Assembly (NCBI GenBank): GCA_014378085.1 | Contig: JACMOJ010000227.1 | Coordinates: forward strand, 1 to 5,033 | Length of the DNA: 5,033 nucleotides | DNA from: Burkholderiales bacterium | Lineage (GTDB): Bacteria; Pseudomonadota; Gammaproteobacteria; Burkholderiales; Usitatibacteraceae | Reading direction: 5' to 3' | Shown: positions 1 through 4,782 of the stretch, piece by piece | Layout: every line of letters starts with the position of its first letter | Position numbering within the stretch: the first letter of the stretch is position 1 | Notes under the pieces: generated by a model | The model's database searches: none | What the model was told of the DNA's origin: nothing | What the model saw: only the letters and a program-made list of their open reading frames with translations | Translations under genes and position numbers: made by a program

Positions 1-1
1 A

Positions 2-43
2 TCACCGTGCGCGGGGTTTGACCCGCTTGGGGATTTGGAATGA
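2..43 (+). CDS. possible 3' tail of an upstream gene (partial)
   Basis: One forward frame is open from the left edge and ends at TGA 41-43. That stop overlaps the next gene's ATG at 40 as ATGA, a common sign of translational coupling. The visible C-terminus would be about 13 residues, ending GDLE. The other two forward frames are also open at the edge and stop at 19-21 and 46-48, so the frame is chosen only from the ATGA overlap. No function can be read from so short a piece. Confidence 0.3.
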   Translation, partial: SPCAGFDPLGDLE

Positions 44-327
44 CTACTGACATCTATATCGCGACCACACACTTCAAAAGCATCGCGGAAGCAATCGCAG
101 CATTGAAGCCGTGCCCGTTCTTCGGCGTCGTGACGCCCGATCAGGTCATGATGACCTTGGCAGAGTTCGGCGTACTCCCCGAAATCATCCGGGCCGACGT
201 TGAGCGCGTGGCTCGGATAGACGCCGAAATCGAAGCCCGCAAGTTATCTGACGCTATCTCCAAGCCTGTTGCTAATGAGCAACTAGCCCCGTTTTCAGCA
301 CCTGCAAAAACGCTGCTCCTAAACTAA
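40..327 (+). CDS. hypothetical protein, 95 aa
   Basis: I do not recognise this family. The ORF starts at ATG 40, with a purine-rich GGGGA (29-33) six nt upstream as a plausible ribosome binding site, and ends at TAA 325-327. The protein has no signal peptide or membrane segment. Residues about 12-22 are Ala/Ile-rich and helical-looking, a CPFFGVVTPDQV stretch follows, and residues about 46-72 form a charged helix rich in Glu, Arg and Ala that could be a short coiled coil. The C-terminal 20 residues look disordered. It may be translationally coupled to a gene running in from the left edge through an ATGA overlap. Base composition is ordinary for a high-GC host, unlike the AT-rich gene at 638. 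It could be an island or phage accessory protein, but nothing in the sequence settles that. Confidence 0.6.
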   Translation: MTTDIYIATTHFKSIAEAIAALKPCPFFGVVTPDQVMMTLAEFGVLPEIIRADVERVARIDAEIEARKLSDAISKPVANEQLAPFSAPAKTLLLN

Positions 328-349
328 CCCCAACATTAAGCAATTTGGC

Positions 350-374
350 CTGCCGCCATGGCAAGCCATGGCAG
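350..374. repeat. imperfect inverted repeat (possible RNA hairpin)
   Basis: CATGG (357-361) pairs with CCATG (366-370) across a CAAG tetraloop. CTGC (350-353) pairs with GCAG (371-374), leaving three unpaired bases on the left side. It begins 23 nt after the 40-327 stop codon and has no T-tract, so it is not a standard intrinsic terminator. It abuts the palindrome at 375-390. Confidence 0.4.
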
Positions 375-390
375 ACAACTCAGGAGTTGT
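375..390. repeat. perfect inverted repeat, 7-bp arms with 2-nt spacer
   Basis: ACAACTC (375-381) is repeated in inverted form as GAGTTGT (384-390) around AG. The tight two-fold symmetry fits a binding site for a dimeric regulator at least as well as an RNA hairpin, because a 2-nt loop cannot close a stem fully. No T-tract follows. Function is unknown. Confidence 0.45.
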
Positions 391-637
391 GGGGCTGGAT
401 CGCGACTCGCGCCCAGATAGCGAAATCGCCAATTCCATTCCTATAAAAACTCATTCAAAGAAAATCATCGCTCGATAGTCAGGAGGACAAAGCACTAAAG
501 CCAAACCACAGCGAAGCTATTTTTTGAAGTTAAATCGCATCAGCTAACTAACGAAACGCATTTGCGCATCCGCGCTTCTGCGACAGCGAACCTATGCCGC
601 TCGATTGTAGGCGGATAAATCCAAGGACGAAATAACT

Positions 638-1159
638 ATGACCACCAATAGCACACCCCACGCCAGCATCAAGCCGGCCTTCACCGTGACCAGCAGATTG
701 GGTGAAACCGAGGCGACATCATCTATCGTTTTAGTTTTCCCCTTCTTCGGAAGGGAAAGCAGAATTTTATTTTCGATGGAGACTATTACTACGCTAGTTG
801 AGAATCTTAAAATTATCATCAATCGCAAGCGTGTCGGAGGAATTCAAATGTTTACCGACCAAGATGAATTTTTATATCTGTCAAAATCTAATGAACGAAT
901 TCGTATTCAACTTAATCGCGAATCAAACGGCGGCGACTACGCTCAAGAGCTAATTGAAGTGACGACTCTGCCGGTCTCAATGGTGCCGGAAATGCTTCTA
1001 GCAATTCGGCAGGAAATTGGGTGCGTCTTACGAAACTTCTACACCGACGAAGAGGACAAGGAGGAAAGTTTTTGGGCGAACCACAATGCGTTTTTACAGA
1101 AAGAGAACGAACGCTTGAACAAAACGGCGATCGAAAATAAAAATGGGACGGCACACTGA
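638..1159 (+). CDS. hypothetical protein, 173 aa, AT-rich gene
   Basis: I do not recognise this family. The start at ATG 638 is supported by AAGGA (623-627) ten nt upstream. The stop TGA 1157-1159 shares one base with the next ATG (TGATG), so the two genes are probably co-translated. The N-terminal 30 residues are Thr/Ser-rich and look disordered. Residues about 28-100 alternate hydrophobic and polar residues in a probable beta-rich fold (SSIVLVFPFFG, IQMFTDQDEFLYLS, RIRIQL). Residues about 112-132 form an amphipathic helix (MVPEMLLAIRQEIG), followed by a very acidic segment (TDEEDKEESF) and a Lys/Asn/Glu-rich helical tail. There is no signal peptide or membrane span. Part of the gene is markedly AT-rich: 781-900 is 33% GC by my count, against 65% at 1921-2040. 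That suggests acquisition from a different source. Confidence 0.72.
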   Translation: MTTNSTPHASIKPAFTVTSRLGETEATSSIVLVFPFFGRESRILFSMETITTLVENLKIIINRKRVGGIQMFTDQDEFLYLSKSNERIRIQLNRESNGGDYAQELIEVTTLPVSMVPEMLLAIRQEIGCVLRNFYTDEEDKEESFWANHNAFLQKENERLNKTAIENKNGTAH

Positions 1160-1341
1160 TGTCGAAAACCTCGTTTACATACGAGCACGGTGGCAGAACC
1201 CATTCTGGTAGTCATGAAATTAGTTCAGGAATGATTTTCGTAACGACAGAGTTCGGCCAGAAAAAAACGCAGCTTGGCAATCTGCGAGCAGAAACACTGG
1301 CGGGAATGCTTGCCCGCGAACTTGCGCGAGAGGCCTCCTAA
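1159..1341 (+). CDS. small conserved-looking hypothetical protein, 60 aa
   Basis: The ATG at 1159 overlaps the upstream stop by one base (TGATG), so translation is likely coupled to the 173-aa gene. The protein has a Tyr/Gly/Ser-rich N-terminal half with alternating residues (FTYEHGGRTHSGSHEISSGMIFVTT), then GQKKTQLGN, then an amphipathic helix ending LAGMLARELAREAS. This order of short beta strands, a G-K-TQ-G turn and a C-terminal LAREL helix resembles a group of small uncharacterised proteins I associate with Rhizobiales. That is an impression from memory, and no function is known to me. It is the last gene before the terminator at 1370-1403, so the operon ends here. Confidence 0.72.
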   Translation: MSKTSFTYEHGGRTHSGSHEISSGMIFVTTEFGQKKTQLGNLRAETLAGMLARELAREAS

Positions 1342-1369
1342 CTGATCTTATGTCCTATTGCTTAATCTG

Positions 1370-1403
1370 ATCCCCCGCGCTTTAGATGCGCGGGGGATTT
1401 TTT
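1370..1403 (+). terminator. strong Rho-independent terminator
   Basis: TCCCCCGCGC (1371-1380) pairs perfectly with GCGCGGGGGA (1388-1397) around the 7-nt loop TTTAGAT. A further A-T pair (1370/1398) is possible. Six T residues follow (1398-1403). It ends the 638-1341 operon, 28 nt after the last stop. The 3' arm also contains the likely ribosome binding site of the lipoprotein gene, whose ATG begins on the base after the T-tract. Confidence 0.92.
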
Positions 1404-1658
1404 ATGAAGTTAAATGCTCGGCTCTTTCGCAAAATGCTCGTCGTGGTCGTGCCGCTAATGCTGGCTGGCTGTGGCGGCGGTCATGATCGCTATGCGGCGC
1501 CCGGCATCGACACGCGGAACCTGGATCAGGCGAAATACAACAACGACCTCGCGGACTGCACCCAGCTTAAGAAGGACCACGGCTTCGTCGGCGACGGCGG
1601 GATGATCGGCGATTGCCTGACGCAGCGCGGCTACAGGGTCACTGACCCCAAGGGCTAA
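1404..1658 (+). CDS. small putative lipoprotein, 84 aa
   Basis: The protein opens with a classic type II signal peptide: a basic n-region (MKLNARLFRK), a hydrophobic core (MLVVVVPLML) and the lipobox L20-A21-G22-C23. Cys23 would be lipidated and the protein anchored in a membrane facing the periplasm. The mature part is Gly-rich, then has an LDQAKYNNDLADC segment (Cys52) and ends with a GDCLTQRGYRV segment (Cys71). These two Cys could form a disulfide. The pattern of a Y-x-x-DLADC segment and a C-terminal CL-x-x-RGYRV resembles small proteobacterial glycine-zipper lipoproteins, but the zipper between them is missing here; this family link is tentative. I chose ATG 1404 because GGGGGA (1393-1397) sits six nt upstream; an in-frame ATG at 1386 would add MRGGFF before the basic region. 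The gene is convergent with the 1670 gene, 11 nt away. Confidence 0.75.
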   Translation: MKLNARLFRKMLVVVVPLMLAGCGGGHDRYAAPGIDTRNLDQAKYNNDLADCTQLKKDHGFVGDGGMIGDCLTQRGYRVTDPKG

Positions 1659-1669
1659 TTCGGGAATAA

Positions 1670-1897
1670 TCAATACTGCGGCCGCCTGAGCAATTCGGGC
1701 AGCCGCGATATTGCCTTTGCTATCTTCCTTGCTTCCTCTCGCGACAAGTGATCGCCGGCGTATTGATAGCGTCGCGCGTGTAAGTCTTCCCGGTGAGGCA
1801 CGGTCAGCAGGAACAGCCCGGAAGCGTCCCGCACCGTGAATCCTCCATCATCTTCGGCCATCGTCCACGGCGCTGGAAACCGGCGTAGGTTGTCCAT
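1670..1897 (-). CDS. small hypothetical protein with RRFPAPW start, 75 aa
   Basis: Second gene of the minus-strand operon. The preferred ATG at 1897-1895 overlaps the upstream stop TGA (1899-1897) by one base. A GTG one codon earlier (1900) would instead give a 4-nt GTGA overlap. Either way translation should be coupled. The protein begins MDNLRRFPAPWTM, has a beta-like middle (GGFTVRDASGLFLLTV), and ends in an amphipathic helix (LSREEARKIAKAISRLPELL). This layout matches a group of short proteins that I recall as common in Bradyrhizobium and relatives, usually annotated as hypothetical. No catalytic motif, signal peptide or membrane span is visible. The promoter upstream of the first gene carries a LexA box, so this protein is probably made during DNA damage, but what it does is unknown. 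Confidence 0.8.
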   Translation of the reverse strand: MDNLRRFPAPWTMAEDDGGFTVRDASGLFLLTVPHREDLHARRYQYAGDHLSREEARKIAKAISRLPELLRRPQY

Positions 1898-2145
1898 CAC
1901 GCCCTACGGGATGCAGGGGTGCCGTTGATTGCTTTGTTAGTGCCGGGGTATTTCCGGCGCTGTTCGCCGACCAGCGTGTCCCGCTCAGCCACCAGCCCGT
2001 CTACCTTCTCCTGCATCCGCGCGAGCAGGGTTTCCGCCGCGCCAATATCGATCCCGGCACGCTGTAGCCGGAGCATGTCCTTTCGCTGGCGCGTGATCTG
2101 GCGCCTCATGTGTTCGATTTCGTTCCGGATCGCGTCGAGTCCCAT
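1897..2145 (-). CDS. small coiled-coil hypothetical protein, 82 aa, first gene of a LexA-box operon
   Basis: The protein is almost entirely helical. Residues 3-29 (LDAIRNEIEHMRRQITRQ onward) and about 37-60 (AETLLARMQEKVDGLVAER) read as two charged amphipathic helices joined by an AGIDIG turn, so a helical hairpin or dimeric coiled coil is likely. A short basic, disordered tail follows. I chose ATG 2145 over the in-frame ATG 2151 because AGGA (2154-2157) lies eight nt before 2145 but only two nt before 2151. Similar LDAIR-EIE-MR proteins are, as I recall, common in Bradyrhizobium and uncharacterised. The promoter directly upstream (2169-2197) contains a perfect LexA box, so SOS induction is the best-supported statement about this gene. 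It is translationally coupled to the gene at 1670-1897. Confidence 0.8.
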   Translation of the reverse strand: MGLDAIRNEIEHMRRQITRQRKDMLRLQRAGIDIGAAETLLARMQEKVDGLVAERDTLVGEQRRKYPGTNKAINGTPASRRA

Positions 2146-2153
2146 AGCCATCG

Positions 2154-2157
2154 TCCT
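2154..2157 (-). promoter_or_regulatory. ribosome binding site that decides the start of the 82-aa gene
   Basis: AGGA on the minus strand lies 8 nt before ATG 2145 and only 2 nt before ATG 2151. The spacing favours the shorter protein starting MGLDAIRN. Confidence 0.6.
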
Positions 2158-2168
2158 GATTTCGGTCG

Positions 2169-2197
2169 ATAAGAACGAAACAAGAACGACGAGTCAA
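2169..2197 (-). promoter_or_regulatory. sigma70-type promoter of the minus-strand operon
   Basis: Read on the minus strand, TTGACT (-35, plus positions 2192-2197, 5 of 6 consensus bases) is followed by a 17-nt spacer and TCTTAT (-10, 2169-2174, 4 of 6). Transcription would begin near 2162, giving a leader of roughly 17 nt before ATG 2145. The LexA box occupies most of the spacer and the first bases of the -10, so bound LexA should block RNA polymerase. Confidence 0.75.
2173..2187. promoter_or_regulatory. LexA (SOS) box, GAAC-N7-GAAC
   Basis: GAAC at 2173-2176 and GAAC at 2184-2187 are separated by exactly seven bases. This direct-repeat form (GTTC-N7-GTTC on the other strand) is the established LexA recognition sequence of alphaproteobacteria, unlike the palindromic box of Escherichia coli. 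Its position inside the -35/-10 spacer of the minus-strand promoter is the classical repressor position. It lies more than 60 bp from the plus-strand promoter, so it should mainly control the minus-strand pair. I scanned the GAAC/GTTC sites of the window by eye and found no second box with the right spacing. Confidence 0.8.
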
Positions 2198-2225
2198 CAA
2201 TAGTTTCTGGACGACGCGTCTTAGG

Positions 2226-2243
2226 TGTCGATTCCAATCGACA
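2226..2243. promoter_or_regulatory. 18-bp perfect palindrome, candidate operator
   Basis: TGTCGATT (2226-2233) is repeated exactly in inverted form as AATCGACA (2236-2243) around CC. The right arm overlaps the candidate -35 (TCGACA, 2238-2243) of the plus-strand operon, the usual arrangement for repression by a dimeric HTH protein. The operon encodes a small HTH protein at 2512-2739, a candidate autoregulator by inference only. Confidence 0.55.
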
Positions 2244-2267
2244 GGCAGCAGTACCCGGTCTTATATT
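2238..2267 (+). promoter_or_regulatory. candidate sigma70-type promoter of the plus-strand operon
   Basis: TCGACA (2238-2243, 5 of 6 consensus bases) and TATATT (2262-2267, 5 of 6) are 18 nt apart. Transcription would start near 2274, some 24 nt before ATG 2298. The promoter faces away from the LexA-box promoter, so this short region serves two divergent operons. Confidence 0.55.
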
Positions 2268-2297
2268 TCGTTCCCGGATATTGGTGCGGGTGGGGTG

Positions 2298-2501
2298 ATG
2301 TCCAGTCGAAAATCGGTCTCGACGTTGAGACACTATGCGGCTCATGCATTGCGTAGCGCTCGCCAGCTTCCCGTAGGTCCTGATCGGAACGAGCTGCGGC
2401 AACGCGCGATCTGCTTGCTCTGGCTTGAAAGAAGGTTTCTAAAAAATGAAGTTGTGGACAGGGCATTAGCGGCAATCAGCTTGGATCAGAAAAAGGATTG
2501 A
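2298..2501 (+). CDS. small helical hypothetical protein, 67 aa
   Basis: First gene of the plus-strand operon. I chose ATG 2298; a GTG immediately before it (2295) is in frame and would add one residue. The purine-rich GCGGG (2286-2290) lies seven nt upstream but is a weak ribosome binding site. The product is basic and mostly helical: a Ser/Arg/Lys-rich start, helix TLRHYAAHALRSARQ, then the turn LPVGPDRNELRQ, then helix RAICLLWLERRFL, and a final short helix. The LPVGP-RN-LRQ signature followed by a Leu/Trp-rich helix is one I associate with small uncharacterised Bradyrhizobium proteins. There is no signal peptide, and the hydrophobic ICLLWL stretch is too short to span a membrane. The next gene begins 10 nt after the stop, with its ribosome binding site overlapping this stop codon. 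An overlapping antisense ORF (2106-2402) is rejected because this reading has the recognisable motif and operon context. Confidence 0.72.
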   Translation: MSSRKSVSTLRHYAAHALRSARQLPVGPDRNELRQRAICLLWLERRFLKNEVVDRALAAISLDQKKD

Positions 2502-2505
2502 GGTG
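2500..2505 (+). promoter_or_regulatory. ribosome binding site that decides the start of the HTH gene
   Basis: GAGGTG lies six nt before ATG 2512 and overlaps the preceding stop TGA (2499-2501). The in-frame GTG at 2503 lies inside this site and has no good site of its own, so ATG 2512 is preferred. Confidence 0.65.
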
Positions 2506-2511
2506 CACCCT

Positions 2512-2739
2512 ATGCTTAACATCCGACCTTGGGACAACGAACAGGTCGAAATTCTCAAAAAGCTGATTGAGCGGAATGTATCGCTGGCGCGAGCGGCAGT
2601 TGTTTTGAACCGGCGGCAATCGTCGGTGCAGAAGAAAGCTCGCGAACTTGGCAAGCCGTTTCCCGGCGTGCGTGCACAAAAGGCCGCGCTGAGAGTCATT
2701 TTTATAGAGGCTGATACATTTAGGGAAAATCGAAGATGA
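2512..2739 (+). CDS. small SANT/homeodomain-like helix-turn-helix protein, 75 aa
   Basis: Residues about 6-47 form a tri-helical HTH of the SANT/GcrA-like type. Helix 1 opens with Trp7 (PWDNEQVEILKKLIE), helix 2 is SLARAAVVLN, and helix 3, the probable recognition helix, is RRQSSVQKKARELG. The pattern W..eq...L.kL...g.S...aA..L.R...sVq.kAreLG is typical of small DNA-binding proteins of alphaproteobacteria, where it binds DNA directly. A basic linker and a short hydrophobic segment (LRVIFIEAD) follow, perhaps for dimerisation. ATG 2512 is chosen over GTG 2503 on the position of the ribosome binding site. The stop overlaps the next start as ATGA, so the three genes from 2298 to 2927 form a coupled operon. 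It may regulate its own operon through the palindrome at 2226-2243, or another target in the island. The fold assignment is fairly secure; the target is a guess. Confidence 0.78.
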   Translation: MLNIRPWDNEQVEILKKLIERNVSLARAAVVLNRRQSSVQKKARELGKPFPGVRAQKAALRVIFIEADTFRENRR

Positions 2740-2927
2740 CCCACAATCCTGTTAAAAAACTGACGCGAACTGAAATGCGTATTGTATTGAACGCGCATCG
2801 TGGCACCGTTGACCTAACACTAAAGTCGTTGACCGACGAAGAACTGTGGCAGCTTATTTTGAAGAGGGAAGCGGAGGTAGCGGCTAAGCTGGAGCAAGCA
2901 GGAGTCGATAACTCAACGCTTCATTGA
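2736..2927 (+). CDS. small hypothetical protein, 63 aa
   Basis: Last gene of the plus-strand operon. Its ATG (2736) overlaps the preceding stop by four bases (ATGA), so it is probably translated by re-initiation after the HTH gene. The protein begins with a basic segment (MTHNPVKKLTRTEMR), then VLNAHRGTVDLTLKSLTDEELWQLILKREAEVAAKLEQAG, two amphipathic helices with a Leu/Trp face and a charged face. It is soluble, with no signal peptide. I do not recognise the family. Its coupling to an HTH gene suggests a partner or modulator of that protein, but this is inference from position only. The gene is convergent with the integrase, 44 nt from its stop. Confidence 0.68.
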   Translation: MTHNPVKKLTRTEMRIVLNAHRGTVDLTLKSLTDEELWQLILKREAEVAAKLEQAGVDNSTLH

Positions 2928-2948
2928 TCTTGAGATGCCGTTCAAGAT
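2927..2948. repeat. hairpin between convergent genes
   Basis: ATCTTGA (2927-2933) and TCAAGAT (2942-2948) form a 7-bp stem with an 8-nt loop, starting at the last base of the stop codon of the 63-aa gene. No T-tract follows on either strand and the stem is AU-rich, so it is at most a weak or bidirectional termination aid. The 8-mer AGATGCCG occurs twice here (2933-2940 and 2945-2952). Confidence 0.35.
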
Positions 2949-2971
2949 GCCGAGCGATGAGACGCAGCTAG

Positions 2972-4723
2972 CTAGTGCACCACCGTCGGAAAGGACACAG
3001 CCTCTATCATTTCAATTAACCTGCTGAGCACGCCTTCCTTCACGTTCCCATATCGTCCAGTGGTCGTTGCCTTGGCGTGACCGAGTAAAACCGCGAACTC
3101 TTCGTCCATATGATTGACGCGGAAGGCATCAGCCATGCCGTGCCGCAGGCTGTGGAAGTTTCGCGTCCGATCTGCTTTGACGCCGATCTCGCGAAAATAG
3201 TCATTGAAGAACATGGACGGCTTACCGGATACGAAGCCGCGCGCATCCCGCTCGATCTCTGGAAACATACTCGAATCGGGAGTCGCCATCTTGCTCGCGT
3301 GGTAGTCAAGAAGGCCAATCTCGACCAACTTGCTGTGCATTGGAATGACCCGCTGCGACCCCTTTGTCTTGACGGACTTACCGGCAGCACCTTCTTTCGT
3401 AACGTGGAAGATCCAGACGCCATGAAGCTGCCGGATGTCACCCGGCATAAGTTGGGCGATCTCGCCAAGCCGCGCGCCAGTGTATAGGGCTATCAGCGGA
3501 ATCCAGTAGCGCCAATCCCGCACCTTTTCGGCTCCGGCTTCATGCTCGCGCTTCTTGCCAGCGCACGACGTGAACAGTGGCGATGAAAAGATCGTCTTGA
3601 GTTGCGCCGGCGTGTAGGGATGCACCTTCTTTTCGTCACGATCGAAATTGAGATACATCCCGGTCATAGGATTGTCTTTGATAAAGTCGTTCGACAGCAG
3701 CCAGGTTGAAAAGCCGCCCAATGCCGACAGATAACGGTTGATGGTGCGCACCTGAATTGCGGGCTTTCCCAACTTCTCGTTCTTTTCGATCACTTCAAGA
3801 AACGACAGGCCTTTGAACACGGTGATCTCTGCTGCTTTTACCGGCCACTTGAAAAGGTTGGCTTTCCAGTCCCGAACATTTTTCCGCGTCAACGCCGAAA
3901 CGTGCGCTTTGCCGCCGACAAAGTCATTGAACAGGGCGACCAGCTTGCGGTTCTGCCTCCAAGCATCGGGAGCGACAGCGTTGGCGTTCTCCCGTTTGAA
4001 GCGGTCATACAGCTCCATGATGGTTTCGCCGCGTGCGTGGACGACTAGGGTAGGGGGCTGGACAAGCCTGTCCTTTGGCTCGCCTGAGAAGTCGCCAGCG
4101 TCCCTCTCTTCAGCCCGTTTCAATGCCTCCAGCTCGGCACGCTGGACCCCTTGGGCGAGTTTCCGATGTTCCGGGCTGCCATTCTCCAGATCAAGCCGGC
4201 GAGCGTTGATGATCGTCCGCACGGCATCGGCGACAAGCTCGGTTTCGCCGCGACCAGTATCGCGCCGCAGGTCGGTAAAGCGGATAGATCGTTCGGCCAC
4301 GTTATTTTGGAATGTATCCTTAATCATTTCATAGATGCGAAAGGCGTCTATGTCGTATGGACCAAACTCGGCCTCAAGGTGCTTCCAAATTTGATCGAGG
4401 TCAGCAGACGACGGCAGCGACTGGCGCAATTTTTCATCGGCCGTGATCAGCTCCAGATAACGCTTCCATACGGCGTCCTGAAGCTCCGTCTCGGTCAGTG
4501 TTCGGGGCAGGCGCATCTCCTCGAACTGGCGCTCCAGCGAATCAACGATCGGGCGAGCAAGGCGCTTCGCTTCGCGAGGGTCGCTGGTATTCAGCGACTT
4601 CCAAATCTCCCGCTTGGGCTTGCCCAAGGTGCCCATCCGGTTTTGGAGTTCTTTCGGCACCGCAATACGAGCGTAGTAGTTCCGGCTGCCAATGCGTCGC
4701 GAAATATTAGTGGCTAGGCTCAT
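2972..4723 (-). CDS. tyrosine-type site-specific recombinase (integrase) with DUF6538-like N-terminus, 583 aa
   Basis: This enzyme cuts and rejoins DNA through a covalent phosphotyrosine intermediate, integrating or excising a mobile element. Residues 1 to about 65 (MSLATNISRRIGSRNYYARIAVPKEL onward, with SLNTSDPREAKR) resemble the DUF6538 arm domain. A long helical region follows. Residues about 233-352 are the SAM-like core-binding domain (TIMELYDRF to NPMTGM), and the catalytic domain begins near residue 365. All six active-site residues are visible: Arg418 (TGARLGE), Lys454 (VKTKGSQR), His524 and Arg527 (HSLRHG), His549 (LLGHAKATT) and nucleophile Tyr558 (GRYG). It therefore looks intact, and its length suits the large DUF6538 integrases. 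I chose ATG 4723 because the family usually begins MSL; in-frame alternatives are ATG 4735 and GTG 4771. No clear ribosome binding site precedes any of them. The gene converges with the 2298-2927 operon. Target site and directionality factor are not identifiable here. Confidence 0.95.
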   Translation of the reverse strand: MSLATNISRRIGSRNYYARIAVPKELQNRMGTLGKPKREIWKSLNTSDPREAKRLARPIVDSLERQFEEMRLPRTLTETELQDAVWKRYLELITADEKLRQSLPSSADLDQIWKHLEAEFGPYDIDAFRIYEMIKDTFQNNVAERSIRFTDLRRDTGRGETELVADAVRTIINARRLDLENGSPEHRKLAQGVQRAELEALKRAEERDAGDFSGEPKDRLVQPPTLVVHARGETIMELYDRFKRENANAVAPDAWRQNRKLVALFNDFVGGKAHVSALTRKNVRDWKANLFKWPVKAAEITVFKGLSFLEVIEKNEKLGKPAIQVRTINRYLSALGGFSTWLLSNDFIKDNPMTGMYLNFDRDEKKVHPYTPAQLKTIFSSPLFTSCAGKKREHEAGAEKVRDWRYWIPLIALYTGARLGEIAQLMPGDIRQLHGVWIFHVTKEGAAGKSVKTKGSQRVIPMHSKLVEIGLLDYHASKMATPDSSMFPEIERDARGFVSGKPSMFFNDYFREIGVKADRTRNFHSLRHGMADAFRVNHMDEEFAVLLGHAKATTTGRYGNVKEGVLSRLIEMIEAVSFPTVVH

Positions 4724-4782
4724 GTGGGGATACATTCGTATGAGGGCGTCCGTAACACCCAAACGTAGCACTTTCGGAAAAA

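What the first reader, a model, noticed from the sequence alone, without database searches (positions are those of the whole stretch)
2169..2197. An uncharacterised two-gene operon under a LexA-box promoter
The sequence shows TTGACT-N17-TCTTAT on the minus strand, with a perfect GAAC-N7-GAAC box inside the spacer and touching the -10. Alphaproteobacterial LexA is known to bind this direct-repeat form. The genes downstream (82-aa coiled-coil protein and 75-aa RRFPAPW protein) have no known role and are not classical SOS repair genes. If their relatives also carry the box, this would be a small new branch of the rhizobial SOS regulon.
Basis: partly seen in the sequence, partly recalled or inferred. 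Interest (0 to 1): 0.7.

Follow-up and report, generated by a model that had tools for sequence, protein, structure and literature searches.

The report
DNA-damage-controlled small-protein operon in prophages
Two small proteins of unknown function sit behind a DNA switch that looks like the one soil bacteria use to turn on DNA-damage genes, and the same switch stands before many of their relatives in related bacteria and prophages, sometimes beside genes that mend broken DNA.

Summary
The promoter is as described: minus strand TTGACT-N17-TCTTAT (2197..2169) with GTTC-N7-GTTC at 2187..2173. Alone the box is weak evidence (0.20 expected per window; 35 of 200 shuffles have one). Comparison makes it strong. 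Of 102 loci encoding relatives of the 82-aa coiled-coil protein, 66 carry the exact box within 300 nt upstream; other spacers of 3-12 reach at most 2 of 102, the reversed box 1 of 102. In related genomes the box stands before lexA (27 of 27 loci read) and recA (27 of 28). Relatives of the second protein without a coil gene have their own box in 9 of 26 loci.

New: the window matches an 18-kb predicted prophage (99.7%); the second gene of the operon varies; 10 of 51 coil hits lie within 3.5 kb of Ku, ATP-dependent ligase or SRAP genes, 0.43 expected.

Best reading: a LexA-repressed SOS operon of small accessory proteins, probably for DNA repair, also carried by prophages. LexA binding, induction and function are inferred. 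New member of a known kind.

The parts
2192..2197 (-). -35 hexamer TTGACT
   Evidence: sequence; consensus CTnGACT over 65 aligned family promoters
2173..2187 (-). LexA-type box GTTCTTGTTTCGTTC (GTTC-N7-GTTC)
   Evidence: exact box in 66 of 102 coil loci; same half-sites and spacing at lexA and recA of relatives
2169..2174 (-). -10 hexamer TCTTAT, overlapping the box by 2 bases
   Evidence: sequence
1897..2151 (-). gene 1, 82-84 aa predicted helical-hairpin (coiled-coil) protein
   Evidence: AlphaFold2 mean pLDDT 88.2, helices 3-29 and 35-63
1670..1900 (-). gene 2, 75-76 aa RRFPAPW protein, start overlapping the stop of gene 1
   Evidence: AlphaFold2 mean pLDDT 88.1, three strands then helices
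2972..4771 (-). tyrosine recombinase (integrase) of the prophage that carries the operon
   Evidence: Pfam Phage_integrase 1.6e-9 and DUF6538 6.9e-17, PHROG integrase 1.4e-36; window 1-4735 matches predicted prophage record L195 at 99.66%

Best explanation
A two-gene SOS operon. Host LexA is proposed to sit on GTTC-N7-GTTC between the promoter elements and over the edge of the -10, blocking RNA polymerase; when RecA filaments form on damaged DNA, LexA cleaves itself and both small proteins are made together, the second by translational coupling. The proteins most likely act as accessory factors of DNA repair, perhaps with end joining (Ku, ATP-dependent ligase) and SRAP; the prophage carries promoter and operon as one host-regulated accessory unit. 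Shown here: promoter layout, conservation of the box with both families, the same box at lexA, recA and ssb of relatives, the repair-gene neighbourhood of part of the family, the prophage match. Inferred: LexA binding, induction by damage, translational coupling, repair role. Probability of LexA control about 0.85; of a repair accessory role about 0.4.
For: Box in 66 of 102 coil loci, other spacers at most 2 of 102, shuffles 1.1 on average, 4 at most. Between the window's promoter and those of two related prophages the 29-nt core is 90-93% identical while the 60 nt before it are 28-32% identical; the aligned block of the operon ends at window base 2197, the first base of the -35, in both. lexA 27 of 27, recA 27 of 28 with the same box, the miss having only 178 nt upstream. 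The extended form GTTCBNNTTTYGTTCT occurs 69 times in 12 genomes against 2 for the reversed control; some of these sites lie before ssb, DNA polymerase III alpha and dprA. RRFPAPW genes without a coil gene have a box 24-37 nt upstream in 9 of 26 loci. SRAP, ligase or Ku matches (E 1e-5 or better) lie in 30 of 102 coil loci: SRAP 13, ligase 13, Ku 9; in 24 genomes 10 of 51 coil hits are within 3.5 kb of one, 0.43 expected.
Against: No binding or expression data. 36 of 102 coil loci have no exact box, and 17 of 26 coil-free RRFPAPW loci have none. The seven middle bases at lexA and recA (for example GATATGT, GCAATAT) differ from those of most coil boxes, so a second GTTC-repeat regulator is not excluded. 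The window copy, L007 and L015 have no repair gene in the stretches read, and only 17 of the 30 loci with repair genes have an exact box. The association test treats related genomes as independent, and I chose the 24 genomes from the 92 with coil hits. A helical hairpin is generic. The window's own genome is not held, so its own lexA was not read.
Confidence: 0.8

Rival explanations
1. The operon is a phage switch: LexA-controlled small proteins that antagonise the prophage repressor or help excision, so that the prophage responds to host damage (as Tum of phage 186, recalled).
For: The operon lies near the integrase in three related prophages; 9 coil loci come from predicted viral contigs.
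Against: 93 of the 102 coil loci read come from bacterial genome collections (2 duplicates removed), 30 of 102 with SRAP, ligase or Ku nearby; but I did not test systematically whether those copies lie in prophages. The coil protein's best match to an excision factor family is noise (PHROG 6474, E 0.23).
Confidence: 0.15
2. The operon encodes an SOS-induced growth or cell-division inhibitor, or a toxin with its partner, like SidA or DidA of Caulobacter in effect but unrelated in sequence (SidA recalled; DidA from the abstract of PMC4211646).
For: Small SOS-induced genes are often of this sort (recalled); two overlapping small ORFs with a constant and a changing partner.
Against: No toxin, antitoxin or defence family match above noise; the coil protein is a charged predicted hairpin with no hydrophobic segment visible in its sequence; part of the family neighbours repair enzymes.
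Confidence: 0.15
3. The GTTC repeat is the site of another regulator (a prophage or host HTH repressor), not LexA.
For: Middle bases of most coil boxes (YNNTTTY-like) differ from those at lexA and recA.
Against: The coil-type form also lies before ssb in two genomes, and GTTCN7GTTC is the published Caulobacter LexA motif (passage of PMC12700426).
Confidence: 0.1
4. Chance match in a GTTC-rich promoter.
For: 0.20 expected in the window, 35 of 200 shuffles with one.
Against: Conservation and spacer specificity, promoter core conserved while flanks are not.
Confidence: 0.02

Closest known systems
Alphaproteobacterial LexA/SOS regulon (Caulobacter: 47 RecA-LexA genes, motif GTTCN7GTTC; PMC12700426, passages read)
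   Same: direct-repeat box over the promoter; same box at lexA and recA of the relatives
   Different: target genes are two small-protein families with no match above noise in the curated libraries searched; LexA binding not shown
SRAP - Ku - ATP-dependent ligase SOS neighbourhoods (PMC3765255, abstract and passages read)
   Same: SRAP, ligase or Ku lies near 30 of 102 coil loci, in several divergent from the coil gene
   Different: the passages I read name Zn-ribbon and ImuB-C partners, not these small helical proteins; the window copy has no such neighbour in the stretch read
LexA-controlled prophage genes such as Tum (recalled) or phage GIL01 (PMC4551915, start of abstract in a search listing)
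   Same: prophage gene with a host-type LexA box
   Different: homologues were met mainly in bacterial genomes (whether in prophages was not tested), and no antirepressor similarity was seen

Membership tests
Alphaproteobacterial LexA regulon | GTTC-N7-GTTC box at the promoter | tested here: met
   window 2187..2173; 66 of 102 coil loci
Alphaproteobacterial LexA regulon | same box at lexA and recA of the same organisms | tested here: met
   27 of 27 lexA and 27 of 28 recA loci in related genomes; the window's own genome is not held
Alphaproteobacterial LexA regulon | box conserved at the orthologous promoter | tested here: met
   core 0.90-0.93 against 0.28-0.32 just upstream, window versus L007 and L015; but 36 of 102 family loci without exact box
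Alphaproteobacterial LexA regulon | LexA binds the site | not testable with these tools
   needs gel shift or ChIP
Alphaproteobacterial LexA regulon | RecA-dependent induction by DNA damage | not testable with these tools
   needs transcript measurement
SRAP-Ku-ligase repair neighbourhood | gene linked to SRAP, Ku or ATP-dependent ligase genes | tested here: inconclusive
   true for part of the family (10 of 51 hits within 3.5 kb, 0.43 expected; 30 of 102 loci), not for the window copy, L007 or L015
Toxin-antitoxin or defence system | match to a known toxin, antitoxin or defence family | tested here: not met
   best match of the two proteins E 0.043 in Pfam, 0.053 in PADLOC, none in NCBIfam
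Prophage | portal, capsid, protease, terminase and integrase in one element | tested here: met
   record L195, 99.66% identical to window 1-4735: portal, head protease, major head protein, terminase subunits, tape measure, integrase

The most novel reading that the evidence does not exclude
Nitrobacteraceae have a mobile, modular SOS branch: a standard LexA promoter placed before interchangeable small-protein genes (coil with RRFPAPW, coil with the AIDQYAEA protein, CDQAIA with YYVALPF, and others) that serve as SOS-inducible adaptors of Ku/ligase end joining and SRAP, and that prophages carry, promoter and operon as one unit, from host to host so that lysogens repair breaks differently.
Probability: 0.25. 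Interest if true: 0.7.

Novelty: new member of a known kind. Interest (0 to 1): 0.52.

Why it matters
The SOS response of rhizobia and their kin is known mainly for classical repair genes (recalled). Here 29 of 69 extended-box sites in 12 genomes lie before families of small uncharacterised proteins (my count), so a good part of this regulon may be small proteins that have not been tested. The link of part of one family to Ku, ligase and SRAP gives a concrete hypothesis, and copies in prophages suggest that phages bring SOS-timed factors to their hosts.

Tried and rejected
Window against plasmids (near) and phages (distant): no match. Pfam, NCBIfam and PADLOC on both proteins: nothing above noise. 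Structure searches: no PDB match with E of 0.001 or less for either model; the coil model resembles the seryl-tRNA synthetase arm and designed hairpins, taken as generic. tRNA in the window: none found. Generic sigma-70 scan: this promoter not listed. Papers: the rows listed by searches (10-20 rows each, of up to 697 papers) showed none on these families or on a Bradyrhizobium LexA regulon; this covers only the open library. da Rocha 2008 (PMC2238201) is not held. One passage of PMC3108266 gave no motif letters.

The idea that every relative has the box was rejected: 36 of 102 do not have it exactly. Part of these sit behind a further small ORF, 11 of 36 have a one-mismatch box, and some coil copies look broken. 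The idea that RRFPAPW is the fixed partner was rejected: 16 of 102 loci have it within 700 nt downstream, while 58 of 102 have the AIDQYAEA protein somewhere in the locus.

Full report
What is there. The minus strand holds TTGACT (2197..2192), 17 nt, TCTTAT (2174..2169), with GTTC half-sites at 2187..2184 and 2176..2173. Downstream lie an 82-84 aa coiled-coil ORF (1897-2151) and a 75-76 aa ORF (1670-1900) whose start overlaps the stop of the first. By itself the box is weak: 0.20 expected per window and 35 of 200 shuffles contain one.

Where it is. The best named relative of the coil protein is from Tardiphaga sp. vice304 (99% identity). No whole genome is held for the window. Window 1-4735 matches 13159-17893 of a 17.9-kb predicted viral record, L195, at 99.66%. 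The other genes of L195 include portal, head protease, major head protein, terminase, tape measure and HNH endonuclease, with the tyrosine integrase of the window at its end. A second viral record of the same source genome number (L196) and a Tardiphaga-like genome (L265) hold related prophages with the operon near the integrase. Compared with the window, their 29-nt promoter cores are 93% and 90% identical while the 60 nt before the core are 32% and 28%. The aligned DNA blocks that hold the operon end at window base 2197, the first base of the -35, in both: promoter and operon behave as one unit.

Test of the prediction. The coil family is found in 92 of 391 genomes of the family. I read 102 loci: L001-L104 without two duplicates, the window replacing L006. 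66 of 102 have exact GTTC-N7-GTTC within 300 nt upstream, 1 of 102 the reversed form, and spacers 3-6 and 8-12 give at most 2 of 102; shuffles give 1.1 on average, 4 at most. After removing similar upstreams 47 of 79 have it. Of 65 aligned boxes 59 lie 38-60 nt before the start and four near 170 nt, where a further small ORF comes first. Of 36 loci without an exact box 11 have a one-mismatch box within 700 nt and 25 have none by that criterion. In the loci, 9 of 26 RRFPAPW relatives without a coil gene nearby have their own box, eight of them 24-28 nt and one 37 nt upstream of the start; 17 have none.

Is it LexA's box. Of 28 genomes, lexA was read in 27 and all 27 have the box; recA has it in 27 of 28, the miss having only 178 nt of upstream sequence. 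Their middle bases differ from those of most coil boxes. The coil-type form GTTCBNNTTTYGTTCT occurs 69 times in 12 genomes, 2 times read backwards; 68 of these sites were read and the last is the L072 coil locus. Counting genes on either side of a site: two lie before ssb, six before a DNA polymerase III alpha gene (two of the six checked), one before dprA, others before DUF5131, DUF2130, a macro-domain protein and a DNA methylase. By my count 29 of 69 lie before small-protein families: coil 8, RINEIRRK 5, CDQAIA and/or YYVALPF 11, VIRLWNEL 3, AESAKLN 2 (labels are mine, from sequence strings). The published Caulobacter LexA motif is GTTCN7GTTC (PMC12700426, passages).

What the proteins may do. 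Neither matches a curated family above noise. The coil protein is predicted as a two-helix hairpin with a less certain tail, the second as three strands and helices; no solved fold matches at E of 0.001 or less. The second gene changes: RRFPAPW within 700 nt downstream in 16 of 102 loci, the AIDQYAEA protein in 58 of 102. SRAP (13), ATP-dependent DNA ligase (13) or Ku (9) matches lie in 30 of 102 coil loci, 17 of the 30 with an exact coil box (one example of each confirmed by Pfam); the stretches read differ from 1.5 to 5 kb per side. In 24 genomes, chosen from the 92 with coil hits, 10 of 51 coil hits lie within 3.5 kb of one of 262 such genes, 0.43 expected, Poisson 4e-11, with the caveat that related genomes are not independent. 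SRAP-Ku-ligase neighbourhoods as such are known (PMC3765255, abstract and passages). The window copy, L007 and L015 have no such neighbour in the stretches read.

Verdict. Control by LexA is likely (about 0.85); a role as accessory repair proteins is the best guess (about 0.4).

Noticed in passing
L195, L196, L265 (window 1-4735 = end of L195): Three related prophages (L195 and L196 are 18-19 kb records) with head genes, terminase and tape measure; possibly small or defective phages or satellites.
   Followed up: partly
window 2197; L196 3505; L265 5390: DNA similarity between these prophages around the operon stops at the first base of the -35, as if promoter and operon moved together.
   Followed up: partly
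L022, L008, L074, L064; L018, L046, L050, L049: SRAP or Ku genes divergent from the coil gene with an exact box (first four) or a one-mismatch box (last four) in the shared intergenic stretch, so the box may control both sides.
   Followed up: partly
L173, L180, L190, L059: A DUF3072 gene stands divergent from the coil gene across the same box (Pfam DUF3072 1.7e-27 in L059).
   Followed up: partly
L165, L181, L183, L192, L231, L232: A LexA-type box with a further GAAC half-site beside it lies about 270-340 nt before a DNA polymerase III alpha gene.
   Followed up: no
L174, L253, L255, L256, L259, L260, L261 (one genome, G168): A repeated stretch with GTTCC(T/C)ATTT(T/C)GTTCTTGAC, the box placed before a -35-like TTGAC.
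   Followed up: no
window 2295-2927 (+): Small plus-strand ORFs start about 100 nt from the box on its other side; one (2503-2739) matches a phage regulator family (PHROG 323, 5.3e-7), so the box could also act on them.
   Followed up: no
L047 / L266 (G153 C1 about 1,639,800): A coil and RRFPAPW copy without match to the prophage genes in the 16 kb read, whose promoter box looks decayed.
   Followed up: partly
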